Of a DNA stretch of 64,000 bases, positions 3,499 through 58,000 are shown in pieces (the first letter of the stretch is position 1; each line of letters opens with the position of its first letter). The stretch lies in assembly GCA_907163375.1 (NCBI GenBank), contig CAJQUW010000909.1, forward strand, positions 372,001 to 436,000. The letters run 5' to 3'. Made by a program: the position numbers and the translations under genes. Origin of the DNA: Prostheceraeus crozeri. Lineage: Eukaryota; Platyhelminthes; Polycladida; Euryleptidae. Under the pieces are notes generated by a model. It had not been told where the DNA came from. It saw nothing but the letters and a program-made list of their open reading frames with translations, and made no database searches.

Positions 3499-6400
3499 GT
3501 AATTCTTGAACAGTATATTATCAGTAACAGGACATCATAAGACCTTGCTTCGAAATGCTTCTCACGAGCATCTGGAATTATAAATATATATATATTTGAT
3601 TTGCTGTTATTTATCTCATCCAATATCAGTTTACTTCTGAATTGCTCTGTTATCTCTTTATCTTGTAGTTCTTTTTGTGTAGCTTTAATTTCGTATAACT
3701 TGGCAGTATGTCGTTCTTTTTACATGTTTCATTGAATTTTATATCATGTTGAATCTTAATTGATTTGTGGTATACCTTTTCTGTTCTTCTGAATTGATCT
3801 TTTTCTTCTTTTGATAACTTTGTAATGACGATAAATGAATACCATTTTATCGCAAAGAATTTTAATTTATTAGGCGACGTTTCAGACCTTACTTGGTCAA
3901 TTTTCAAGCAATTATAAATTACAAAAAGTTGTTTAAGTCTAAAGACTAGGTACAAAATATTTGAAAACAACAACCTTAGAAATGGGAGTAAAAAATATGT
4001 ACATATGCATCAAAAAATCTAAAGTCAATGTAGGTTCAATGATATGAAAGATAGAGATCATAGCATCAGATGACATTCAGATTACGCGTTAATCCTTTTT
4101 TATTTACTCTGATTAAGTTTGGGATCTTTTCTTTAATTATTATCGCTTCTGCTATTTGCAATGTGTTGGTTTCGTTGAAGTTGAGCAATAATTTTTTTTC
4201 GTTGAGCCATAATTCTCATGCTGTTTGCTTCTCACGGATAATAAGTTCGTTGTATAGCCGATATATTGGGCATTATTACAAGTGCCCCCAATGCAAGTGC
4301 ATCTGTATGCAACATTATGTGAGGATTGAAATTTGTCCATTTTTGTTTTTATTGCATTCACTAATTTGAAGCTTTTATAATATACTCTCACATTTATTTC
4401 AGATTTTTCATCCGTTGGTTGCGTACTGTCATTGACAATCTTCAACAGTCTCTTTTCTTCAATTATGTAGTTGGAAGTCATTTGACTTTTAAAATAAAAC
4501 AATATCTTGTTCTTCTTATCTTCACTTTCTGCATTATTCATGAATCTTTGTAATAATACTTTCACTTGCTCGTCAATGACTTTTATAGGATAATGACTGT
4601 TGATCAATGTCTGTCTCATTCTTTCGATTTCATTGTGAAATGACATCCAATCCGAACAAATGTGAAGCGCTCGATGAATGCAACTCTTTATTACGGATAA
4701 TTTTTATCTTTCTGCCGTGAAAGAGTTAAAGTCTAAGCATGTGTTGGTAGCTGTTGATTTATGATGAATAGAAAATTTCAAGTCATGCTCTCTTTTTACC
4801 AACACATCCAAAAAAACGGTTGGAATTATCCTTTTCATGCTCAAAAGTGAAGTCCAGTACTGACTTTTTCTTGAATTCATCGATGATATATATATATATA
4901 TATATATATTGTCACCAATTGGTTGCATCATGTATCAACTTATAGGAAGTAATGTTGTGTATTATCAACAGCCATAGTGACATTTTGCGAGATGAATTCG
5001 CCATAGTTTGCAATGAATGATAAGAACTTCAAACTCTCTAAGCCATTTTGGAGCCTCCCTTTATTTTTTAAAGGCCCTTACAAATTTCGTTTCATAACAG
5101 GAGCGAAACCTTGCTCTACAAAACAATCATCCATATTGCTCAATAAAGAGCTCTCTGTAATCAGAGATCAGAGATATTTTTCAACAGTGTCGTAATTCAA
5201 TTTATGCTAATCACGGCATAAACTGTCTCTGGAGCGTCTTATGCGTATCAAAAATTCTTAATAAAGTCTGGACATGAAAAGCGCAGCAAGTTTCCGACTT
5301 CTCTACTCTTTTTGCTAACTTGGATCAGCGTGAAGTTGCTTGACCTGATTTTTGATAATTGTGACCGAAAATATGTATTCGTTGGTTTTGACAAAAGCTT
5401 CCGGTCGCGGTCAAAATAAAACGGGTATACAATCTTCATGAACGACAAATTCAAATGTGCAGTTACATTTATTTTAGAAAGTGTTTTCAAGTTGGAAGTC
5501 AAGTTTTCCGACAGACCAGTGATATTCGCATGAAAGGGAATTGTAGTCCTCTCTTGGTTGATTTGCTTTTATTACAGTGTGAGCATGCTTATATGCAACA
5601 CTTTACTGAAAATGAGAAAATGGGACTGACTAAACTGCTATCTAATACTTCTAGATACATCGACGACATTTGTAATTAAATATAGGGAGTTTCTTATAAC
5701 TATGACAGGATTATAACTCTGTCAGAAAGCCTCAATGAGTAAGTCCAAGTTTTCGTCCATCCTCAGCAATTCATTTTGCAATCTGGAAGAGTGCAACATT
5801 GATAAAATGTTGCCGTAAAATGGGCATTATAAGTTTTTAGTCTCCTGGGACAAAATGCTTCAACAACCGTATATGATTAATTATAAAAATTTTAACCAGA
5901 TTATTAAACCTGTTTACCTTGACAGTTTGGAAGTGAACAGAAGCGGTGGAGTTGGGTGATCTTGAATTTGGGCCGAAACACGAATCCTACCTGCATTACT
6001 GTTGATAACTTCCTAGTTCGTGTAAAGAACGCAAAGCCAATCTTTAAAAGGACTAACACCTTTTATTTAAGTATGTACAGTATTACTATATATAAACACT
6101 TTTTCAAACACATGTAGTCTGTAAGTCGTTGGTCAAGCTTGACATGAAATTTACTAGCCTCAAATTGCGTGTGTACATTCAACCTCAATTGGTAGCCGAC
6201 TGATTTTTGAGTCGCTAAAAACTACTCCTTAACGCAAAACTTATTTGTCACAGCTGGCTTTCATGAAGAAAATGGCTAAAACAGATTAAAGTAGATTAAA
6301 ATGATTGAAATTAATTCTTTTAGAAGAAAGTGATATTCAAAGGTCCCTCATATGAAGAAATATTTCTACTTACGTGAATGGAATTTAAGCACTCATATCG

Positions 6401-34000: not shown

Positions 34001-37000
34001 ATTTAAGCAGTGGAATGGCTCAGTCGGTTAGGGGTTCCGCTTCGATATAGAGGTGCAGCAGATTCCGTGTTCGAGTCTGTCTCCATGGAGGTAGTGACAT
34101 CGCTGTAGTCACTGTAGTTTGTGGACCCTAACCTATAGTGATGGTGTTTAATAGCTACTGCCTAAAAATTCCCCACCCTCGCTAAATAGCATAGGTCGTG
34201 CTCATAAAATGATAGGAATAACTGGAACCATCGAGTAAAAGCAAACTGCAGTTTAGAATTTGAACCACATCTTTGTTATGTCAAAGGTGTGGACTATTAC
34301 TAGGCTTGCCGGTGGGACAGAATTCTTCGTCTTATTCCCATGTATTTCCACAGAAAAAATATTTCGATTCCCATCCCTCGAGAAAGCTATCAATCGTCGA
34401 TGATAGATCCTATGATAAGATGGACATGCATGAAGAGGTATGAATATTACAATAAGATGAAATGCGATACGCCTTTGTAGGCCTACTATATACCGGGGTA
34501 TAATAGCATAGAGATACTACTAAAACTATTGGTTCCTAGGCCTTATCCTTGGACCATAGGCCCTATACACATATTTCTTGAAGTTTGTCCTTAAGGTTTG
34601 AAAGAGGAAGTGTCCGCGAGGTTTCGTTTCAGATCAATGCGCTAGGTAGGCCCTAGACCGACTTTCAAGCATGGCGGTAATAAAATTTTACGGCATGAAG
34701 TTGGTAGGTTGCAGAAGAGCTGTCGAGCTCTTCTCACAGACTTTAATCTCTACATGTATCTATTAAACTTTAAATCTAAAATCATTGACTCAACACAAGT
34801 ATCAACTTTCTTAGCATATGGTAGCCCCTAGTTTAAAGATTGATGATCGAGCCTATACCGCACCTGAATAGGCCTACACTTGATTTCCCCACTCTATCTA
34901 GAACTAGTTCTAAGCTTACTTATAGGCTAGAAGTTATAGGCCCTAAACAACTTTCGTAAATAACTTCTGCTCAAAATAAGCACCAAAATTTTTCAATTAG
35001 TGATATACAAATTTCCCACGGCTTTTCCATGAGACAGTGGGTTTCAGTACATCGTCCCATTCCAATCACATTCCCATGAGAATCCCATGGGTTTCCAATT
35101 ATCACCGGCAACCTTGACTATTACGATAGATAAAATTCATACAGGGTGATACAAACGTTTTATTTTGAAACGGGTTTAACAGGGCAGAGGACTCAATCTT
35201 GAATTCATATTTCATACTTCTAATGTATCTACAGTAACCAGCTTAGATGCATGAGACTTGTCAATGACTGTATTATAATTTTAGTGCCATCATTCTGTAA
35301 CACAAAAAATTGATTACCCATATGATAGAAAAACCAAGAAAAATTGTATAAAATACCGATATTTTTTTTCATCTTCCAATGAATTTCATGAGAATAATAA
35401 CTTCAACAAAATCAAGCAAATTACACTACCAAACTCTCAGAAAAGTCACAATTCTCAAGCTAGCCTTCAACTTGCCGCAAATCTTCGAGAATGTGTTGTA
35501 AACAGATTCAAGCATGTTTGTTGAAAAAGTTGTTATTTTACCAATGAGCAATTGAAAATCACGAGCAGGACGGTGATCTCCACACACATGCAATGGCAAC
35601 GCAGCTCTACATGTAAATAGTATCACAAATCTGCTCATCATGTTCACTTTTGGGCAGCAGATAATCTCCTAATGCAAACCAAGAAACTTAAAGATCAGAT
35701 CATCCTGCTGCTACAGTGTATTGATGGCTTAGGGTGACAGTTGACTCCACAGTCGGAAGTGACTGATATCAACACAGATACAATGAACACCTCCCATTCT
35801 TGTGATGTGCTCAGAGGCATAGTGCTGTCAAAAACGGTCAAATCAAGAAAACTTTGTCAGCAAGATAGAGCTCCTCCCTATTACAGTTGTGCAACTCAGA
35901 CTTTATCGAATGAAGATATCATAACAAAGGGTCGATTGAATTGCCTCCTAGATCAGATGACAAAATGATGGCATGAAAATGATAATAGAGTCATTGACAA
36001 GTCTCATGCATCTAACCTTGTTACTCCAGTTACATTAGAAGCATAAATGAAACATGAATTCAAGATTGAGTCTACATCGGCTGGAAGATAAAGCGTTTTT
36101 CATGCATCACCCTGAATTTTGACGTAAGAGACAAGTATGAAGCCGTCATATTTGTCAAAAAATTGCACGGAATATCACTGGGTCATGAACACGTGGAAAA
36201 TGGATGATCCAGCTGTTATTCAGATCACAAGGCGTGACGCGTTAATCAGTTGTTGACTGAAATGTTAGATACCTTAATCATAGACCTTAATGAACAAGGA
36301 CATAGGATAATTGAGTGACTTGCTATGTGATTGGTCTGCAATCACAGCGTGGTTGCAACATGTTATGTTATACATAATGCTTAAACTTAAAATATTACGA
36401 AAATAATTAACACAATTCAAAGTAAAATCATCTCGTTGATAATTGCAGAAACCACAGGATACTCTGGATCTTCAAACTCGCGAATTGGAACTAAAGAATG
36501 TTTCAACTTTGACTCTGAATATATCGCTCATGCTGAAATATCCATTTCAACTATTGTTAGAGGATGGTTCTGAATCGTCTGATATGGTGAGTTGCCATGC
36601 CTTTCAGCTGTGTATTCAGTATTATTTCAAGTTCTATAACTGGGCATCAGGGGCTTTTATATAAGCTTCAGATTCAATACCACACGTTGATGTAACTTTA
36701 CCGGCGCAGTGGCCTTGTGGTAGGGTGTTCGTTCTGCGTGCTGGAGACCTCTGTTTAGACAAGGGACCTGCGAATCGGCAAATTTTCAGTCGAATCGAAT
36801 CGAGTTGTGATTCGCGATTCGAATCAAATCATAGAGAACGTAAAAAGGCATTGAGCTTGTTTTCTTGTACGATTTACTTATCCATTGACAAAATAGGCCT
36901 ATCAAATAAGACAGAGAAATCATACAATTTGTATGGCATAATCGAAACTCGAAGCTTCGCAGATCCCTATTTTTAACCTTAGTCGGGTCAAGATTTTTGC

Positions 37001-40000: not shown

Positions 40001-43000
40001 TATGTGAAAACATTTTCAAGTCGCAGATTTACGTTCATTGGTTACGGGCATTCCAGTTTAGGGTTGTAGCGGACGTTGAATACTTGAAAATTCGACCGAA
40101 ATTTCAGCAAGTGCCTAAGTTTCAGCCAAAAATCTTGATTTATGACACTAAACAAGGTTTGTTTTATATATGCCTTGATTGATTGAATTACTCATGGTTG
40201 GAAAAATCAAGTATTCGATTGTTTTATATATTTGAGATAACAATAATTAATTTTGGCTATTTTCCACAACCATTCTCAAGTAAAAAGAAATATATAATAT
40301 AAAATGTACTACAGCTTTCAATTGGTTGCATGGTTGGGGTGGTGTATCACGGATTTTTGCCCACTGTGCTGTATAGTGATTGCTATTTCTTGCCATGATG
40401 AATGCTACGAACTCACAAAGACATCTTAAAAATGATTGTCACAAAGACATTTTTTGGAAAGTTGTACATTTTATACATATATTTCTTTTTATTTGGCAAT
40501 GACTGCGGAATATAGCCCAAATCAATAGTTGCTATCTCATTTATATGTAAGACCATCAAATTCTTGATTTTCCTACCATAATTAGAAAGTTTTTCTTTGA
40601 TTTTAGCACATTCTCTAACGGTATATTATTCTCCTAATAGGGGGACGTCACATCAGAATTAGAGATCCGAGGGATCCAATTACCGATCCGATTCGATCAC
40701 TTCCTAAGATCGAGCTACATCTGGGTTGATTATGCATTGATTTAAATATCCAGTCAATATGTATATTTAAATATATACATTTATATTATATATACAAAAT
40801 ATAAAGAGTTGCAGAGTGAAAAACTCAAAGCCGCACATTTTCTACAGAACAATCAAGTTCAAACAGGATCAACAGCGATGTAATATGGTGAAAAGTATCT
40901 ATATATCAATATAGGGCATCTATATTTCAAAAGAAATTATTCGCATCCAAATATCGGAATTTTCCGACGATAAAATATTGGTACTTATAGGTTATCTCCC
41001 CCCCCTAGGTTTTCAAATTTGTCTAAAATCTGCAAAAATGAATCAATCGTCACCAAACTTCATGTAGACGTTTTTGAGTATATTTTCTATCCACATACAA
41101 AAATCTATGCAAATCGGACAAGTACTTTTTGCATTAGAGATGATAACGTGAAGCGTAGCGATGTCAACAGCCTGATCTGACCCTCTGTTCGACGCATTAT
41201 TATTACTTATTTGTGGGTTGTTCTCAATCCCTCTTCGTCTCATCCACTGCTATTTGAAATCTTCCCACGACCACTACCTTGCCACACCTTTTTAAAGTTG
41301 AAAATGTTAGTGTAAGGTCATCATCACTTCATGAGTTGTCGGGAAATTACTTTTTGGCCTCATGTTCTTTCTGCTCAGGCGATGAGGTCAGAAGAAGTCA
41401 AATCAAGTTGCAGCAACGCTTCACTTCAAGTTATCGCCCCTATTTCAAAAACTATTTGTCCAATTTGCACAAGTTTTGGTGTGTGGGTAAAAAATATCAT
41501 CACTCGCGTGCACGAAAAGTTTTGTAACGATTGATTCTTTTCTACGGATTTTACACAAATTTGAAAACGTGGGGGAGATAACCCATACGTACCAAAATAT
41601 TTTGAATATTCCAATTTTTTGGGATGAAAATCTTATCAAGCGCCGGCTTCAATGTCAATGGTGTCTTGCATCTTCAAGAGGAGCGTCAAAAGTCAAATAT
41701 TTCAACTGTCTGAATTATTCAATCTTCATGTAGGTATAAAGAATAGTGATGATTACTATGATGTTAGAAATGAAATTTTCATCAGTTACAATGAATGTTC
41801 ATGTTGATTTTTAGACTATTATTTATGCACTGATATCGAATTTTCATTTCCATAAAGAAACGCATGCACCGTAAAAGGATTGCCTTTAAGGTATGATGAG
41901 CATCATGCTCATGTGATTGGTAAAAAGTAATTCAGATGATTTACCTTTATACTTCGTGGCCCATAATGTATCGTCGTATGTAAATTTTGATTTCTTAATC
42001 ATCACTGCTATTCGATGTTTTATGCAATTAAAGATTGATGTTTTATGACAGTTTGATTTTGTATGGAAAAAAATATTATTTAATAAATAAACTCATTGAT
42101 TATTGAAGTGAGAAGTACTTTCATTTAATTGATGATTGAGTGCTTGGATTTTTTTATATGCTTTATTAAAAAGCTTGCGTATTTAGCTAAATAGTTACTC
42201 TTGTACCTCAAAACTGTGCTGTGACACTACTTGCGTGCTGTGTTGCAGAAGACATAAATACCTCCTGATAATTCCACTTTACTTATGGATTAATTGAACA
42301 TGCAAAAATCTTTAATTTGTGATGTGTAACATTACTCGTATATTATTCAAACATCGTAGTGTTCGTCGTCTTTCAGCAATTATGAGAAGAGGAGTTTTTC
42401 GACGATGACTTTATTGTAAAAATTCATAAATAAATTTGACCGATGTTTCAGACAGCACCGCTGTCCATCGTCAGGGCCTTCATGCATAAAGTGACATACC
42501 GACAATCGCGACCACAGTGAACAAAATTCTAGTCATGAAAAATGACGCACAACACAGCAAAGCGGATGATGAAGATCACAGGCCTATTTCACACTACATA
42601 GAAATCGCGAACTACCAGTACTAATACTGTCAGTGAGATAACTCGCGCCAGACACCAACCTGGTATTTCACCTCTCCGCAGCAGAGTATTCAGTGAATAG
42701 GAAAAATCTAATTGGTACAGTAACAATAATTAATAATTATGCTGTAGGCAATACATGGTATATACACGTAAAAGAAAAAAGAAAAAAGAGAAGGAATGAC
42801 AATTACAATTCATCATATAAAGGCGAAATAGGGAGGTCACATCGGTTGAGACACAAATTTCTTTTGGCATGCCATGCCTCCAAAAATAGACGTTCATGAT
42901 AGTTCTTTTCATGGCATACTATCTCTGCCGAGCTCCAGTCGACAGAATGGCCTTCTTCGATGGCATGTTCAGCTAAAGCAGACTTGTTTGGCTGAATAAG

Positions 43001-46000
43001 GCGCACTGCTGCTTGATCCTGTTTAAGGCGAGTTTGAAAACTATTCCCTGTTTGCCCAATGTATGAACGATTACAATCATTGCATGGGATCTTATACACA
43101 AATCCACAATTCAAGGTAGGGTCAACTTTGTCTTTTGGTAGTGTGTCCCAACCGATGTGACCTCCCTATTTCGCCTTTATATGATGAATTGTAATTGTCA
43201 TTCCTTCTCTTTTTTCTTTTTTCTTTTACGTGTATATACCATGTATTGCCTACAGCATAATTATTAATTATTGTTACTGTACCAATTAGATTTTTCCTAT
43301 TCACTGAATACTCTGCCGCGGAGAGGTGAAATACCAGGTTGGTGTCTGGCGCGAGTTATCTCACTGACAGTATTAGTACTGGTAGTTCGCGATTTCTATG
43401 TAGTGTGAAATAGGCCTGTGATCTTCATCATCCGCTTTGCTGTGTTGTGCGTCATTTTTCATGACTAGAATTTTGTTCACTGTGGTCGCGATTGTCGGTA
43501 TGTCACTTTATGCATGAAGGCCCTGACGATGGACAGCGGTGGGGTCTGAAATATCGGTCAAATTTATTTATGAATTTTTACAATAAAGTCATCGTCGAAA
43601 AACTCCTCTTCTCATTACATTATTCATCAAATTATTTTTGGCAGTGATAATTAATTACTGTTATAATGATCCATTTTTATAATTTTTAAATTTATTGATG
43701 GGTATATCTTGACAAAAATATTGTGTGAAAGGAAATTAATAAAATCTTCTATCTGGAGGTGAACTTCATATTTTCTTCAATTGCTTGAAAGTGATTGCTT
43801 CACAATGCACTCGTTTTGCATCCCTTAATGACACTCCTCAGCTTGACGAATCATATTTGCATCATAATTGCCATAACAACCGAATCAGCCAAAACTTGAG
43901 GTGTTGAAAATGACCGAATGTAATCATAAACATTTATGAAAATTCATCAAATCAAACTTCAATTTGCTCAAATGTTTGATAAAAACTATTTGAAATGGAT
44001 ATAATCGGTAAAAAATCTTATGTATTTTTGCTGATATTTCAATATCCGAAATGTTTCGTAATTGCATCCCGACCTTATTAATTGTGCTCAAATAATGTCA
44101 TACCACATATTGCGCCGATGTATATTGTAGCTTCCTTATTTGAGCTGACGTCATACAGTACACAAATAATACGAATTAGTTTCTTTTGATCCCATACTTG
44201 ATTTGAACAGAGAAAATGAACGAAACTAAATTCGAAGGTAACTAAGAATTAGGTGGTAGGATATCTGGTTTTGCTAAACACTAGCCACATTTCGGTTGGG
44301 AAGTGCAGAAGTGCCATGGTTCGAATGTCTTCCCCGAGAGGTGCCACCACTCATATTAAAATATAGTAAACTGTGATCACTCATCCTAACCCATCAAATT
44401 TGTTTCCACGAATTCAAAATAGATTTCTATATTAAGACAAGTAACCTGGCAATTGCCAGGTTACTTGTCTTAACATGTAATGAGTAGCGCCTGCGTGACG
44501 CGCCTCAATCTCGGATGCGGTATTAAGTGGTTGCAGAAAGCAGTCCGCCCTCCACGTGCCTGCGTTAAAGCAGTGCCTTCCTGGCTAATTCACGCTCTCA
44601 ACAGATGGTCCGGTGGCCTTGTGGTTAGAGGGTATGCTTGCACGTCCTCTAGCTCCAACGTTGCTGGTTCAAACCTACTCACGACTGATGAGGCCCAGCC
44701 GGCCGAAACATGTCTCGTGGTGGTTACATCTGTTGAGATTTGATAGATTTCTATATGATTAATATATCTTGAACATAGGCAGATGCATCGGTACAATGTC
44801 CTGATTCTTCCGCAAAAATATGAGTAGAGTGATATGATTCTAGTTTAGAAATGCTAGCCGGTACTTCTATATCATAACGCCAGTGGCGTATTTAGGGACA
44901 AGCCATCGGGCCATCCCCCCCCGTCAGGAATTAGTCGTAGTTTTTTTGCAAGAATCCCAGTTGATAACGCTACAGGAAAGCGATCATTCACTGATCTAAA
45001 GCATCTCAAAAATTATTCGCGATCGAGCATAGGAGAAGATCGATTGAATGTATTAAATCAGCATTATATAAACAGAGACATTCAGATCAATCGCAACCAA
45101 TTGTTAGATAACTTTGCCATGCAGAGTAGACGACGATCTGATTTTTTGCAAGTACAAATTCTTCAATATAGACCGGGCACTCCTGAATACCAAGCCGATT
45201 TCTGTTTCATTTGTAACCTGCAGTGACTTGCATAGAACCACGCTCCAATCGGCCAACATGTAGTACCATCACTCGTCATCTTCAGTTATGTTTTGTAATG
45301 TTGATGACGCACTGGATCGCTTTAAAATTGTTTTCCATCCTCGGAGTTTCCAGCTATTGTCCATCTACGAGGCATTGTGCATTAAACGGTTCGCACCCGA
45401 CTTTTGTGTACAGAAAGATATCTTGTTCACTCTACGTCTGCCTTGACTAACTGACTATTGACTTTTGTACTAACATCGTCATGCCGCTAAATTTGTTATT
45501 CACATCCGTGATCAACATGAAATAGACCGGACGAAAGCGCTCGTTGATGAATTTGCTGCTTTTGTCTATTCATAAATTGCTTAGAACTACCAAAATTTTG
45601 AAAAATTTGGCATTCCTGTTTTTTTTTTACTTTTTTGCACAATATTGGACTGCGGAAGATACTATCAGTATAGGATAAATCAAATTATTTCAATTCAATT
45701 CAGCAAAGTAAGTTAGCAATAATTTACTATTGCATAATAGGTCATAGTTACGAATGAATGCAATTTGTGGCACCCCCTGGAGGAATTTCTGGATACGCCA
45801 CTGGATTATGGCGATATGAAATCCTTTGTAGTGAGCTAATTTTCCTTGGCAAACGGCCATGGAAATGCCGGTTAGCATAGTACTAGCCTTAACTTGTTTA
45901 GAATTGCGAGTGAGTGGGGCTTCCCATTCCGTACTTAGTACGGCTTCGTGCATTATGTGCGGGAGGGGTGAGTTTGAAACAAATGGCAAGACTTCCCGCA

Positions 46001-52000: not shown

Positions 52001-55000
52001 GCAAGATAAATTTACACCGATGCACCTGCGCAGGCGTGCCAAAGCCATGGCTGCTGAAAAGGCAGTTGCACCTTCATTTGAGATGATACCATCAAGTGGT
52101 GAACTAAAACCTGGCCAGCGAGTGAATGTACAGGTAAGATTGAGTGTCAAATTCCATTATCATTTAGATTATTACTTGAATATAAGTAAGCTAGAGAATC
52201 TTGAAAATATTGGAATTGAATTGAATCTTGAAATTGACAATCGGGTTTACTTTTGACGACCAATTAGTGTAATACGAAATGCTCAGTTATTTACCTTCTT
52301 TCGATTCGCATTGAATACGATACAAACGAAATGCCATATGAAACCTTATGTTCCATAGATTATTTTGGCATATATTTCGTTTTCATGTGCGGTCAGCTGT
52401 GTCCTTATGAAACAAATTGAGTGTTTTCTTTGATGCAGGATTTTAACATGAAGACGACAGAATTTCTTTATGAAAGTTGGCAGACAGCATGAACTGTCAG
52501 TCAGCTTCATCATGACACACGGCTTTTAGGATTGGCTGAATGTACAAAAAGATAAAATACTAATAAATTTTACCGAAAAATTATTGCTCAAAAAAATCTC
52601 ACAAGATTTTCTCATCGATGAAGATGCTCAATTTCAACAATCTTTGTACCATGTGAAAGGTTATGTCAAGCACTTTATTTTGGCAAAGCGTTTAAGTGAT
52701 GTCTGGTCAGCAGACTAAAAGGTATGAATGTTTGGTCAATTCGTTCACCGACACCTACAGACGAAACTACGCAATACAGAAAATTAGGATCATCACCATT
52801 GAATCAGGCTCGTGTTAAGCTTTCAGATGATATACTGTTTTTCGAATTCGGAAATCAATTTGTGAAATTTCATTCAATTTGCACTTTTACCTAATTTTAC
52901 GCTACTTTCGCGTTAACAATGTTCAACAATGGTCAACCTGTACACAACTTAACAACTTCTGTTGCATTAACGCTGGTGCTTTCAAGTTTGGGTCTAAAAG
53001 AATGCTGGTGTTATCAGCTCCAAGAATATGTAAGTTTATCAAAATCGATCCATCCGCTCACTGACAAACTTCAAATTTGTATTATTCCCATAGTCAGCCA
53101 TTGCGTGAGTCATCATTTCCCTCACTTGAGATCAGAAGAAATTCGAATCTGGGATCAGACAAGGGCTTGTCTCGTCTGTTCACCTGTTCACAACAAACAA
53201 TAGCATTTCCTTCACGCCGTAGGAATGCTGGCGCTTGCGCTGCGTCCGATAAATGGAGCAATTCATCAATGATGAAAAAGAGAAAGAGTGACACGTGGGC
53301 CAACATGATATTGACATCTGAAATAACATCGTGAAAGTAACAAAGCAGACAATCACTAATTACTTCTTTTAATTAGGCAAGCCTCACCATAATGCTTCCT
53401 GAACCAAGTGTCTCAGCTGACCAAGTAAATAAGTTTATTGATCGATTGTCAGCATGTGATTAAATTTGATGAGGATATACAAAAGATACAATAATTTTTT
53501 GTGCTATGCAAAGATTTAGGAAACGGACTGTATATATCATTCTCATATATCATCTAAATCAATAAATCAATAAATTGTCATAGCGGATGTATTTGCGCAC
53601 GGGCAATCCCTTCGATAACATGATTAACTGATCATTTACATCAGAAGCCAATGCTATTTCCAGCAAAAGGTTGTTCAAGAAACACACACTCTATTTCACT
53701 GACTTCGAAATAAGCAACATGCATAACGTAAACTTTACTGCATTGTAGGTGAAATTTACTCCAACAGAAGAAAGACGTTACGAGCAGAGAATGGCATTAC
53801 GACTTCATCAAAGCTCTCAGAGAACACTATTGCTCTGTAAAGGTCAAGGTCTTGAGCCTAAATTGGAATTTGAGCACAATCTAGTCACTTTCGGACCAGT
53901 TTTGCCGTTTGCTGTTGGCGACGAGCAAACTGTTTGCGTCAAGAACCCATGCTCTTTTCCGATAGAATTTTATAACTTGGAATTCGATAAGATCTACCTC
54001 GAAGAGGAAAAAATTCTGAGACAGATGTCTGGCTACGATGAGAATAATACGCTACTGCTACCTCCCCGGATGCCAGGCGAAAAATTGCCTCAGGAACTGC
54101 TTGACTATTACGAAGAACAAGTCAAACGTCTCGAGGAGATGGAGCGCCAACGTCGTGAAGAAGAAAACGCACGTCGACTAAAACGTGAAGCGGAAGAAGC
54201 TGCGGCTTTGGCAGCTGCACAAGAAGGATTAGGAGAGGCCCGAGAAAGTCCGGAGGATGGTCAGGGCTCTCCCGAAGCTTCTGCTCGAAGTCATTTCGGG
54301 CCCAACGTTTCTGTGGAGATAATGGAAGACAATGTGAATGAGCGACCGGCGCCGATTCCTCTCACAGAAATTGAGTCCCCTCGCCCAGGTGTTCTTTCCA
54401 GCTCTGCCGTACCTGCAGGCAAGCGCAGTGAGGCTGCAGTCCCTGACAGCTCAAGACCTGGCTCTGAAGATGGTGTTGGAGAACTGGAGATTACGCCCGT
54501 ATCTACAGCAATTGCACGCTATCTTGGCATCGATCTCTCACCGGAGGGTAAAGCTGCTCGCAACAGACGCGGCGTAGCTCTTATAGTTCACGGCCCGCCA
54601 TTGTCGGGGAAAACCTCAAATGCCGTTCGATTGGCCAAGCGTTACGAAGCTGCTTTGCTAACAATTGATCGCGTTATTATTGAAGCAATAGCCAATGGAA
54701 ATACTCCTGCTGGACTAAGAGCTCGTGAGAAATGCGCTGAGGCGGCAAAAAGAGCAGAGGAAGCAGCTGAAGCTGAAGAAGCTGCCGCTGGTGGAGCCGG
54801 AGATCCAAAGAAGCCTGGTCTTAGCATGGAGCAAGTCGCTGCACACACTCAAGGTAAGTAAGAATTTAAACAAATTTTCGCTTTAAATAGGGCCTAATAT
54901 TTAATCTCTCCGAATCTTCTCTCTCCATAGGTGCAGGTGCTGCAGTTCCACACAGTGTTGCTCAAAGCGTAGTGTCCAATAGAAAGACAAGTACGGTTGC

Positions 55001-58000
55001 AGGCAAGCATGGAGCTGGTAAAGATCACAGCACCACTTCTGGTCCTGCTGGAAAGGGTGCTCAGGCAGCATCAACCGCTGAAGCTGCTGGATCTAGCCAG
55101 GTAGGAGTTAATTAGTGCCCAAAATTCTTATATCTCTGAGTTTAGTTACATTTTACGAGTATGCATTATGTTTTTATCATTCGATAGTAACGTTTTTCAT
55201 CTTTTGCTCGTAGGTGCACAAACTTAGATAAATTGATGCTACGTTCAGATTAAAAGCATGCTTCATGAATTTGCAACTTAACTGAAATGTTAATTTAACT
55301 GAAAAGTTTTCAGAAAAATGCTATAAAAGAGATTGGACAATCAAACAATAAACATAACCATCTTTGTTTCTAGCAAAAAAGAACAGATTTTTAAATGCGG
55401 ATAGAAACAGTTTTTGGGTAGAACTAGTACAACGCAGTGCGTCATTCCTAGGAAATCTTCACCTTATGTGCGAAATATTCACGAGTAGCCTTTTGATAGT
55501 TGATGCAGAATTGATTCAATCGGTTTGGTTCGTAGCTTAGATTTTCGTAAGCTTCTAGCGTTGTTGTGTAGATCTCTATACCTTGGATTATTATTTCACT
55601 TCATTTGGCTTACCTTACAGTCTAGTCAATATGATTCCTGGTGTGCAGGTCTCTGAGAAAAGCGTTGTAGGTGGAAGTAAAATTTTGTTTATAGATACTT
55701 AATTCCTAGGGAATGAAATTTCCTCAAACAAAATTGCGAAAATGATTTTGTGTAGATCATTTTTTTGAATCATTTTCTATTTTTTGTGTAAATAAAATCT
55801 GCTGTAGCCAACAAACCAACCTGCCTATGTGAAATGACATTACATGAATTGCATGGTTGATCATGTATATTGATCATACCTCGACAGAAATCCGTAATTT
55901 TTCCTCTAGGCGATACATAATTGTGAATCAAGAAGCTACGTTCTCATCTGCGAGCCAATGTTGATTTTTTGGATATTTGGCTTAAGGGCATTTCTTCTTC
56001 ACAAAACTAATTGATGAATGTAGAAGGCAATCGACTAAACGTGTTCAATTACCTCCCAAATTTGCGCGCTGAATATTTCTTCATTTGCATTGCCCGTGAT
56101 CAACCCTCATCGCGAAAATTTGGGAAACAATTGAATACATTCTTTTTTGCATTCATTAATTAGTTCCGGTCGGAAGAAGGCCATGGTCGTAGAAAATGAA
56201 ACTACTAAGCTAATGTTATTTTTGATGTGAAGTTGAATTTGCGAAGTCATGCATCGGAACATTGAATGGTGCGAAATATCAGGCATCGACATATGGACTT
56301 TTTGACAACGGTTTGCTGTAGATTTTTAGCTGATTTTTCGGTATCATCAAATTTACTGTGTTTATAAATGGCTTATCCCTTATTTTCACTTACGAGACAA
56401 GGCTTTGAAGCAATTTGTGGTCTTAATGATGTTGAGAATAAAGGCAAGACAAAACAATTGCTTCATCAGTAAATTGCGGGCCTTTCGACCGACTCTATTC
56501 ATGCGATTACGTCGGAGAAGAAGAACAAACAAGATAAGGACATTATATATAAAGTCAAGGGAAGTGAAATGAAATCAATGCCATGGAAGGTCAAGCGTCA
56601 TCACTGTCTATTTTTGAACACATAGCACTGGACGGATCTGATGAATAAACATTGCTTCCAGGTATGGTAGTAGTATTATATGCCGTGACGTCACAATCCT
56701 TGTGAAATATGACAGCTTTGGTCTGTTAGTAGCAAAATGATCGGCAGTCAATCACGTGCCTTGTCACAGCACTGCTTGGTTTAGCAGACTTGTGCTGCAG
56801 ACTTGTTTGTTCTTGTTCTCCAACGTAATCGCATGAATAGAGTCGGTCGAAAGGCCTCGCGTTTTAATGATGAAACGGCTGCTTTGCCTTGTCTTTATTC
56901 TTAACAAGGATTTGATTTGGAATGTGTTTAAAATGCTCCTTAGAATAAAAAATAATATCAATTAGTAATCACAACAGGTTCCATCTACGCCTCCTCGGCG
57001 AGGTACACGTCAAGGCTCGTCCTTGCATTGCTCGCATCTTCACAAGGCTTTGGTTGCGGAGGTATGCGGTCGACACAGCGTCGCAAATCATCACCAACAC
57101 CATCATCTGCACCATCAACATCTCCACAACGGGAATCCTGTTGTGAGTCGACGGGACTGCATCCGTATGAGGTTACAATAGTAACGAACAAAGCATTTCG
57201 TCGGTCCTTCTCTTCTGTCATACTCCTGATAGATCATTCATTAAAAGTCGATTTAAAGACGATTTCATGTTACAAGTGATGTCACTCACTCATACGTGTG
57301 TTTTCACTTTTGGTTAGAGTATTTCTGTCTTTCTTTTGAGAGAGGTACTCTATCTTTTCATTTGACCATCTGTTAATTGATCCACCTCACCCATGACCGT
57401 CGCAGTGGCCTTGTGGCAGAGTACTTGCTCTGCGTCCGGGAGACCTTAGTTCAAGCCTTGGTCGGGTCAAACCTAGGACTATTAAAAGGGTACACTCTGC
57501 ATTCCTGCTAAACACTCAATTTAAAAGAATGAGAGTGGATAAATAAGCTTCACCACATGGAAGACAGGCTCCTCGCCCAATGTGCTTCCGAGGATTAATA
57601 AAATCTACATGAATTTATTTAATTTTCTTATGACCTGGCTTTAATCATATGAATTGCGACTGCGATTTGCACAAATCGCTTATATCCTGACTTGAGAAAT
57701 TTGAATATTAAATGCGTTTGACAGCCACTTGTTGACCAATTATTATAGCGTTTTTTATATGCTTGATCGGTCTCGTACTCCGCACTCTATTTAGTCAATG
57801 ATCGGAGAAGAATTTATTACTTACCATATTGTTTGGTTTATTGATTATAAGACTGTTAAAGTTTTTATTAACCCAGCCTCTGCAAATCTTTTTCATATAT
57901 TATATTCAGGCACCTGAAATCCTATAAATGATTGGTCAAACATGAGTTGTAGCCATTTAGTTGAAGGTTTTAGCTATAATGAGGCACGTCCCACTTAACC

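What the first reader, a model, noticed from the sequence alone, without database searches (positions are those of the whole stretch)
44600..44765. tRNA-derived SINE fused to a minimal hammerhead ribozyme
A pol III B box sits about 4 bp upstream of a textbook hammerhead (stem I 5 bp, stem II 4 bp, stem III 2 bp). Transcription would give an RNA that could cut just after its tRNA-like head. The same tRNA head also occurs without a ribozyme at 36703 and 57398, so the ribozyme looks like an acquired module. Such a modular ribozyme SINE may be undescribed in this lineage.
Basis: partly seen in the sequence, partly recalled or inferred. Interest (0 to 1): 0.85.

Follow-up and report, generated by a model that had tools for sequence, protein, structure and literature searches.

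The report
Self-cutting RNA element riding Penelope retrotransposons
The spot holds one copy of a mobile DNA element, present in a couple of thousand copies or more, that couples a tRNA-like promoter to a self-cutting RNA, and the way its copies are inserted matches the unusual handiwork of Penelope-type retrotransposons, a lead on what machinery moves such ribozyme elements in animals.

Summary
A tRNA-type head (A box 44613-44624, B box 44666-44675) and a minimal type I hammerhead (44679-44720, predicted cut 44714/44715) form part of a ~303-bp repeat unit (44450-44750). The exact B-box-plus-core pattern occurs 2,378 times in the 2.05-Gb genome, backwards control 1. It does not look like a ribozyme added to an otherwise ribozyme-less SINE: 81 of 96 comparable head sites carry the exact core; the 15 others are mutated, decayed, deleted or truncated copies. 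Units occur in tandem and head-to-head. In 15 of 15 non-redundant head-to-head arrays with both ends resolved, both outer ends are 3' ends and exactly one carries a ~25-30-nt 'tail'. 9-14-bp direct repeats flank 7 of 15 arrays outside (TA)n. This is the published signature of Penelope-like elements (PLEs), and PLEs here are also tandem and head-to-head. Best reading: a retrozyme-like, Pol III-type, non-autonomous element mobilised by PLE enzymes. The kind is known (metazoan retrozymes; Sm-alpha); the PLE signature on it is the new part. Cleavage and transcription are untested, no PLE partner was found, and stem covariation gave no support.

The parts
44450..44750 (+). One repeat unit (301 of 303 bp; 96.7% identical to a tandem unit in L009) of the tRNA-hammerhead element
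   Evidence: BLAST against loci of the same genome; tandem period about 303 bp
44429..44455 (-). Inverted 'tail' (unit positions 1-27) that makes the window insertion head-to-head
   Evidence: minus-strand match to unit 1-27; 24-nt inverted repeat I1
44419..44432 (+). Left copy of 14-bp direct repeat ATAGATTTCTATAT (target-site duplication, partly microhomology with the element 3' end)
   Evidence: (D3)
44743..44756 (+). Right copy of the 14-bp direct repeat
   Evidence: (D3)
44613..44624 (+). A-box-like motif of the tRNA-type head (GTGGCCTTGTGG)
   Evidence: sequence; position in unit; box name recalled from Pol III type 2 promoters
44666..44675 (+). B box GGTTCAAACC (GGTTCGAACC in many older copies)
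44679..44720 (+). Minimal type I hammerhead ribozyme; predicted cleavage between 44714 and 44715; palindromic ACATGT at stem III
   Evidence: aligned copies
44596..44607 (+). Left arm of a 12-bp inverted repeat (TCTCAACAGATG) that closes the head + hammerhead domain
   Evidence: (I5)
44727..44738 (+). Right arm of the same inverted repeat (CATCTGTTGAGA)
   Evidence: (I5)
44739..44750 (+). 3' end zone of the unit: array ends without tail stop here (unit 296-303, about 31-38 nt after the predicted cut)

Best explanation
This is a short, non-coding, non-autonomous retroelement of the metazoan retrozyme kind. Its ~303-nt unit has an internal tRNA-type (Pol III) promoter followed 3 nt later by a minimal, PLE-like type I hammerhead. 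Proposed cycle (inferred): Pol III or read-through transcription gives multimeric RNA across tandem units; the hammerhead, alone or as a dimer through its palindromic stem III, cuts it to unit length, and host ligase circularises some of it. A Penelope-like protein takes the multimeric or circular RNA, nicks both strands of an AT-rich target, and starts cDNA synthesis on both strands at two internal sites about 31-38 nt and about 63-68 nt after the cut. This yields head-to-head tandem insertions with two outward 3' ends, one of them with a ~25-30-nt tail, and short target duplications. Shown here: the fusion, copy number, unit, arrangement, tails, direct repeats at part of the sites, and PLEs with tandem and head-to-head copies in the same genome. 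Inferred: Pol III transcription, self-cleavage, circularisation, and which PLE protein does it.
For: Repeat and fusion: 2,378 exact matches, control 1; period about 303 bp. Arrangement: arrays come from 20 regions I chose near the top's 43 matches and from 14 of the 30 loci cut for (the other 16 show the same arrays), plus the window. 36 scripted rows merge to 32 non-redundant arrays (C46 x3, C309 x2, C171 x2): 19 are left-minus/right-plus, 0 tail-to-tail, 13 scripted as one orientation. 15 of the 19 have both outer 3' ends resolved, and 15 of 15 have exactly one tail; independent ends at 50% would give 3e-5. Left out: C106, C109 (truncated), C171 (interrupted), C186 (locus ended). Direct repeats of 9-14 bp are seen at 7 of the 15 arrays not next to (TA)n (C735, C309, C12903, C11976, C6304, C26, C56), some overlapping element ends, two with other sequence between one repeat copy and the element; (TA)n adjoins 17 of 32 by my count of printed flanks. 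Published PLE signature: inverted pLTR, 31-bp tail optionally on one of them, 8-10-bp TSDs (PMC3846280, passages); a purified PLE protein cuts and extends both strands at AT-rich sites and starts at two adjacent internal sites delimiting the tail (PMC11167929, parts 1-2 of 4 read). PLEs here: among 137 listed matches (26,424 candidates of the first look, 136 scored), 817-aa open frames, ~2.77-kb tandem copies, and 19 same-contig pairs, all minus-then-plus; in 2 of 3 pairs whose outer ends I fetched one arm runs about 27 nt (C7278) or about 40-45 nt (C4600) further than the other. A second hammerhead family (window 13293-13071, L032, L035) has arm ends 33 and 37 nt apart, and its hammerhead-to-tail block is 77% identical over 104 nt to one about 850 nt downstream of a PLE-like frame in L036. 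Persistence: 20 divergent copies, 69-91% identical; 13 of 20 alignments reach unit position 296 or beyond.
Against: No PLE carrying this hammerhead or 3' block was found: the L114 pLTR of the 817-aa PLE shares nothing significant with the unit, and the 817-aa PLE's outer ends lie before its own hammerhead-like motif (L114 about 122-167 versus 205), whereas here they lie after the hammerhead. In the third PLE pair (C2397) neither arm reaches the tail and one stops about 50 nt short. Eight of the 15 arrays outside (TA)n show no clear adjacent duplication (C8250's true left edge was not printed). Stem covariation on 23 rows is not above shuffles (74.8% of cells paired, shuffle mean 75.2%); 20 of those rows were picked from copies with a changed stem II base and are decayed. 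No TTTT in the unit, but 37% of shuffles lack it too. The window head is not called as tRNA. GC is about 50-52%, above the <45-50% given for metazoan retrozymes (PMC7229834). No RNA data.
Confidence: 0.72

Rival explanations
1. Ordinary tRNA-derived SINE, moved by a LINE, that picked up a hammerhead.
For: A and B boxes in place; a different SINE in the window shares the A-box half of the head: alignment score 21.5, 0 of 1000 shuffles reach it.
Against: Tandem ~303-bp arrays, head-to-head arrays with one tail, no A-rich 3' end. The SINE at 57398 gives 40 places, no two close together on one contig. No ribozyme-less family with this head seen.
Confidence: 0.1
2. Satellite DNA spread by recombination, DNA transposition or rolling-circle (Helitron-like) transposition, with the hammerhead now an idle relic.
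For: Tandem arrays; the three C46 arrays look like segmental duplicates; satellite-like arrays carried by Helentrons in oyster (PMC7492417, seen only in the listing).
Against: 9-14-bp direct repeats at part of the sites, variable 5' truncation, fixed 3' ends, head-to-head arms and tails point to target-primed reverse transcription.
Confidence: 0.09
3. Sm-alpha-like element whose hammerhead acts mainly to trim the head off, with mobilisation by linear cleaved RNA.
For: Head and hammerhead are adjacent; cleavage would release a head of roughly 110 nt plus unit-length RNAs (inference).
Against: Reverse transcription starting about 31-68 nt after the cut would stop at the cut on a cleaved linear RNA, yet arrays hold several full units, and printed 5' breakpoints are spread over the unit, with one (C26) at 266, next to the cut. 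In the one PLE tested in vitro hammerhead mutants did not affect insertion (PMC11167929).
Confidence: 0.09

Closest known systems
Metazoan non-LTR retrozymes (Cervera and de la Pena 2020, PMC7229834; parts 1-4 of 6 read)
   Same: ~170-400-bp tandem units with a type I hammerhead, TSDs longer than 4 bp where present, many copies, coexisting with PLEs
   Different: Here a tRNA-type head sits directly before a minimal, PLE-like hammerhead; GC is higher; the insertions carry a PLE head-to-head/one-tail signature. A 2020 review (PMC7761336, passages) says the repeats show no conserved motif that helps deduce the autonomous partner
Sm-alpha / Sj-alpha SINE-like elements of Schistosoma (PMC2770079, PMC4918200, PMC8490949; passages read)
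   Same: tRNA-derived sequence plus an active type I hammerhead in a short repeat (335 bp for one W-element member) with over 10,000 estimated copies
   Different: tRNA-Gln there (one figure legend says tRNA-Glu); head here not called as a tRNA gene; other lineage (COX1 here looks bivalve-like by eye, untested); sequences not compared
Penelope-like elements with hammerheads in the pseudo-LTR (PMC11167929 parts 1-2 of 4, PMC3846280 passages; Cervera 2014 not held)
   Same: Minimal hammerhead, tandem and head-to-head copies, optional ~30-nt tail on one arm, AT-rich targets, short TSDs; in the anole PLE the cut is 26 bp after the start codon, here about 26 nt after the ATG inside CTGATGAG
   Different: No reverse transcriptase or endonuclease; ~303 bp only; no sequence shared with the one 817-aa PLE pLTR examined

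Membership tests
Metazoan non-LTR retrozyme | Type I hammerhead within tandem units of ~170-400 bp | tested here: met
   about 303-bp period, hammerhead in the 22 near-full units aligned
Metazoan non-LTR retrozyme | Canonical loop 1-loop 2 interactions | not tested
   Helix III is minimal (2 bp), like the PLE-type variants described in PMC7761336; no test of tertiary contacts
Metazoan non-LTR retrozyme | Low GC (<45-50%; descriptive rather than defining) | tested here: inconclusive
   0.498 for the L009 unit, 0.518 for the window unit: at or above the stated limit
Metazoan non-LTR retrozyme | Expressed as linear and circular RNA | not testable with these tools
   no RNA data
tRNA-derived SINE | Internal A and B boxes | tested here: met
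tRNA-derived SINE | Recognisable tRNA structure in the head | tested here: inconclusive
   not called in the window at standard thresholds; ARAGORN at a lowered threshold draws a poor cloverleaf for the L009 head
tRNA-derived SINE | Dispersed monomers with a simple or A-rich 3' end | tested here: not met
   tandem and head-to-head arrays ending in GATAAATTTAT or a tail
PLE-mobilised (non-autonomous PLE) | Head-to-head arms with one optional ~30-nt tail | tested here: met
   15 of 15 resolved non-redundant head-to-head arrays, out of 19 head-to-head and 32 arrays in all
PLE-mobilised (non-autonomous PLE) | Short TSDs and AT-rich targets | tested here: met
   9-14-bp repeats at 7 of 15 arrays outside (TA)n; (TA)n next to 17 of 32
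PLE-mobilised (non-autonomous PLE) | Sequence shared with an autonomous PLE partner | tested here: not met
   none in the one pLTR examined (L114) nor evident in the headless-hammerhead list; other PLE families not examined, so membership as a deleted PLE is not claimed
Sm-alpha family | Sequence homology to Sm-alpha | not tested
   no Sm-alpha sequence was fetched

The most novel reading that the evidence does not exclude
A class of Pol III-driven ribozyme SINEs mobilised by Penelope-like elements instead of LINEs: the tRNA head supplies transcription, the hammerhead processes or circularises the RNA, and the PLE enzyme inserts it by two-strand internal priming. This would name the machinery that moves animal retrozymes in general.
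Probability: 0.58. Interest if true: 0.78.

Novelty: new variant of a known kind. Interest (0 to 1): 0.62.

Why it matters
Which autonomous element moves animal retrozymes is left open in the literature I could read: PLEs are named as strong or likely candidates (PMC7229834, PMC7761336), but a 2020 review says the repeats show no motif that helps deduce the partner. Here an insertion-structure test gives the same answer in all 15 head-to-head arrays that could be scored, with similar arm-end spacing in two loci of a second hammerhead family and in two of three PLE pairs inspected. It makes the question testable in any animal genome by scoring tails and arm orientation, and it adds a tRNA-type promoter as a way such elements could be transcribed.

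Tried and rejected
Covariation in hammerhead stems: 23 rows, no excess over shuffles. TTTT absence: not informative, 37% of shuffles lack it too. PLE partner by shared hammerhead: 137 headless matches, 100 listed; no abundant second upstream context, though a few upstream strings recur twice or more. PLE partner by pLTR comparison: one pLTR (L114), none. An open frame from the ATG in CTGATGAG of about 36 codons in the young unit was read by eye; the older copy L069 has an early stop, so I do not claim it. Pfam on the PLE-like frames of L036/L113: no family at the thresholds used, so their PLE identity rests on BLASTP to window frames 4152-4703 and 42803-43165, motifs recognised by eye, and relatives with 817-aa frames. 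Frame 42803-43165 matches GIY-YIG models only below their curated cut-offs. The motif pair at 42445(-)/43523(+) resembles a hammerhead but stem I does not pair (by eye); rejected. Organism: COX1 in code 5 looks bivalve-like by eye only. Literature: 9 searches; in their listings and the passages read I saw no report of a PLE tail signature on retrozymes. The library lacks most subscription papers and preprints, so this is no proof of absence. Confidence was lowered slightly for the last two.

Full report
WHAT WAS CHECKED. The B box GGTTCAAACC (44666-44675) ends 3 nt before stem I of a minimal type I hammerhead (44679-44720; 6/4/2 bp including one G-U in stem I), with cleavage predicted at 44714/44715. 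A strict hammerhead descriptor finds 2 sites in the window and a mean of 0 in 100 dinucleotide shuffles. Rfam does not call this copy at its thresholds. Of 20 older copies, 9 give a hammerhead-family match at E <=5, the best 31.2 bits with Hammerhead_1, below its gathering score of 34.

WHAT IT IS PART OF. The window lies in a 2.05-Gb animal genome. The window itself holds a HYDIN gene (Pfam Hydin_ADK, E 6e-27), and the mitochondrial COX1 reads in code 5. The element recurs: 2,378 exact matches to B box + 1-14 nt + hammerhead core, against 1 for the pattern read backwards. Copies in 20 fetched regions share a unit of about 303 bp, tandem in many; the window copy is 44450-44750, 96.7% identical to a tandem unit. 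The unit contains, in order, a 5' body, an inverted-repeat arm, the tRNA-type head, the hammerhead, the other arm, and a 3' end GATTTGATAAATTTAT. Twenty older copies, which I chose for divergence out of the 90 listed, are 69-91% identical to the unit; B box and core were required by the search, and 13 of 20 alignments reach unit position 296 or beyond. Many carry the canonical GGTTCGAACC B box, so the family is not a single recent burst.

HEAD AND RIBOZYME TRAVEL TOGETHER. A 23-nt head anchor occurs 2,416 times, 100 listed. One search also listed only its first 100 places, so I compared the range both lists cover: 96 head sites, of which 81 have the exact core. (The script counted 97 with 16 misses; one miss, C536:181560, lay beyond the end's list, and its fetched copy L110 has an intact core.) Of the 15 others, 13 were fetched: 11 carry a mutated hammerhead, 1 (L104) is too decayed to judge, 1 (L107) has lost it by deletion. 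The remaining two (C106, C109) are truncated array ends. Conversely, a pattern for the hammerhead with no T at the second T of the B box gives 137 places; the 100 listed are a mix of copies with a changed B-box base and scattered upstream sequences, as at truncation and inversion points. The 'same head without ribozyme' at 36703 and 57398 is not the same head. 57398 is a separate SINE (39 other scored copies at 87-90%), which shares the A-box half with our head (score 21.5; shuffle maximum 18 in 1000) and has a different body; 36703 is weaker (7 of 1000 shuffles reach its score).

HOW COPIES SIT IN THE GENOME. I mapped units in 20 regions chosen near the top's 43 matches and in 14 of the 30 loci cut for (the other 16 show the same arrays), plus the window. 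The 36 scripted rows merge to 32 arrays (three rows of C46, two of C309, two of C171 are single or duplicated insertions). Nineteen are head-to-head (left arm minus, right arm plus), none is tail-to-tail, and 13 are scripted as one orientation (one of these, C8250, is head-to-head by eye). In head-to-head arrays both outer ends are 3' ends. Fifteen have both ends resolved, and in all fifteen one end stops at unit 296-303 while the other runs on 25-30 nt into the next unit; in (TA)n targets the exact end is uncertain by a few nt. Four were left out because an arm was truncated (C106, C109), interrupted (C171) or cut by my locus (C186). The window is one of the fifteen: left tail 44429-44455, right end at 44750. 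Seventeen of 32 lie next to (TA)n by my count of printed flanks. Of the other 15, seven show direct repeats of 9-14 bp, including ATAGATTTCTATAT at the window; some overlap the element end by microhomology, and in two (C6304, C26) other sequence intervenes on one side. The remaining eight show no clear adjacent duplication in the printed flanks. Inversion and truncation points are scattered over the unit; one (C26) is at 266, next to the cut.

READING. [quoted passage not shown] It also fits the one PLE protein studied in vitro, which cuts and extends both strands at AT-rich sites and starts reverse transcription at two adjacent internal sites that delimit the tail (PMC11167929, parts 1-2 of 4). 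In that PLE the hammerhead cut is 26 bp after the start codon; here the ATG inside CTGATGAG is likewise about 26 nt before the cut, and the two 3' ends lie about 31-38 and 63-68 nt after it. Within this genome PLEs are present: 137 listed matches, with 817-aa open frames, ~2.77-kb tandem copies, and 19 same-contig pairs that are all minus-then-plus (only the best candidates are scored). Of three such pairs whose outer ends I fetched, two have one arm longer than the other, by about 27 nt (C7278) and about 40-45 nt (C4600); in C2397 neither arm reaches the tail and one stops about 50 nt short. In this 817-aa PLE the ends lie before its own hammerhead-like motif (L114), not after it as in the small element, so it is not obviously the partner. 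A second hammerhead family, present in the window at 13293-13071 on the minus strand, has arm ends 33 and 37 nt apart in L032 and L035. Its hammerhead-to-tail block is 77% identical over 104 nt to one about 850 nt downstream of a PLE-like frame in L036.

WHY MULTIMERS OR CIRCLES. If priming starts 31-68 nt after the cut, a cleaved linear monomer would give only that short stretch of cDNA before its 5' end. The C186 array holds 14 hammerhead units, so the template must be an uncleaved multimer or a re-closed circle (inference). Published mussel, coral and axolotl retrozymes are found as circles (PMC7229834). The predicted circular fold of the L009 unit is more stable than its shuffles (z -3.4 against 100 shuffles; window copy z -2.5).

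AGAINST. Covariation in the stems is not above shuffles. No PLE sharing this element's own hammerhead or 3' block was found, and only one PLE pLTR was compared. The 817-aa PLE differs in where its ends lie, and one of three PLE pairs does not fit. The absence of TTTT is uninformative. GC is about 50-52%, at or above the limit described for metazoan retrozymes. There are no RNA data.

KNOWN OR NEW. tRNA-derived sequence plus hammerhead in a short repeat is known from Sm-alpha of Schistosoma (PMC2770079 and PMC4918200, passages), and hammerhead tandem repeats of this size are known as metazoan retrozymes (PMC7229834). The 2020 authors call PLEs a strong candidate for their mobilisation, while a review of the same year says no motif helps to deduce the partner (PMC7761336). 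The tail and arm evidence is therefore the new part; in nine literature searches of the held library I saw no earlier report. I rate it a new variant of a known kind.

Noticed in passing
window 13293-13071 (minus strand; hammerhead about 13201-13150): A second hammerhead element of different sequence with pairing type I stems, near (TA)n. Relatives L030-L036 are the 7 Rfam Hammerhead_1 matches over cut-off in the genome search (five of them near-identical copies); arm ends lie 33 and 37 nt apart in L032 and L035.
   Followed up: partly
window 42380-43640: Head-to-head copies of a PLE-like 3' region around a GIY-YIG-like frame (42803-43165, minus), below Pfam's curated cut-off.
   Followed up: partly
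window 4152-4703 (minus): Another PLE-like C-terminal frame; BLASTP to the PLE-like frame of L036, E 4e-7.
   Followed up: no
window about 14863-62628 (plus): Scattered frames that look like exons of the HYDIN gene; only 53749-54861 was tested with a match (Hydin_ADK, E 6e-27).
   Followed up: no
window 57398-57520 and 36703: A separate abundant tRNA-type SINE at 57398 (39 other scored genome copies at 87-90%) sharing mainly the A-box half with the hammerhead element's head; 36703 is only a weak partial match.
   Followed up: partly
window 46242-46170 (minus): Rfam tRNA match of 38.3 bits, not called by ARAGORN; could be a tRNA gene or a SINE head.
   Followed up: no
G000 C7567:42025-59461: Tandem PLE copies with 817-aa open frames about every 2.77 kb; the pLTR in L114 has a hammerhead-like motif with a 5-bp stem I by eye, stem II not cleanly in register.
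   Followed up: partly
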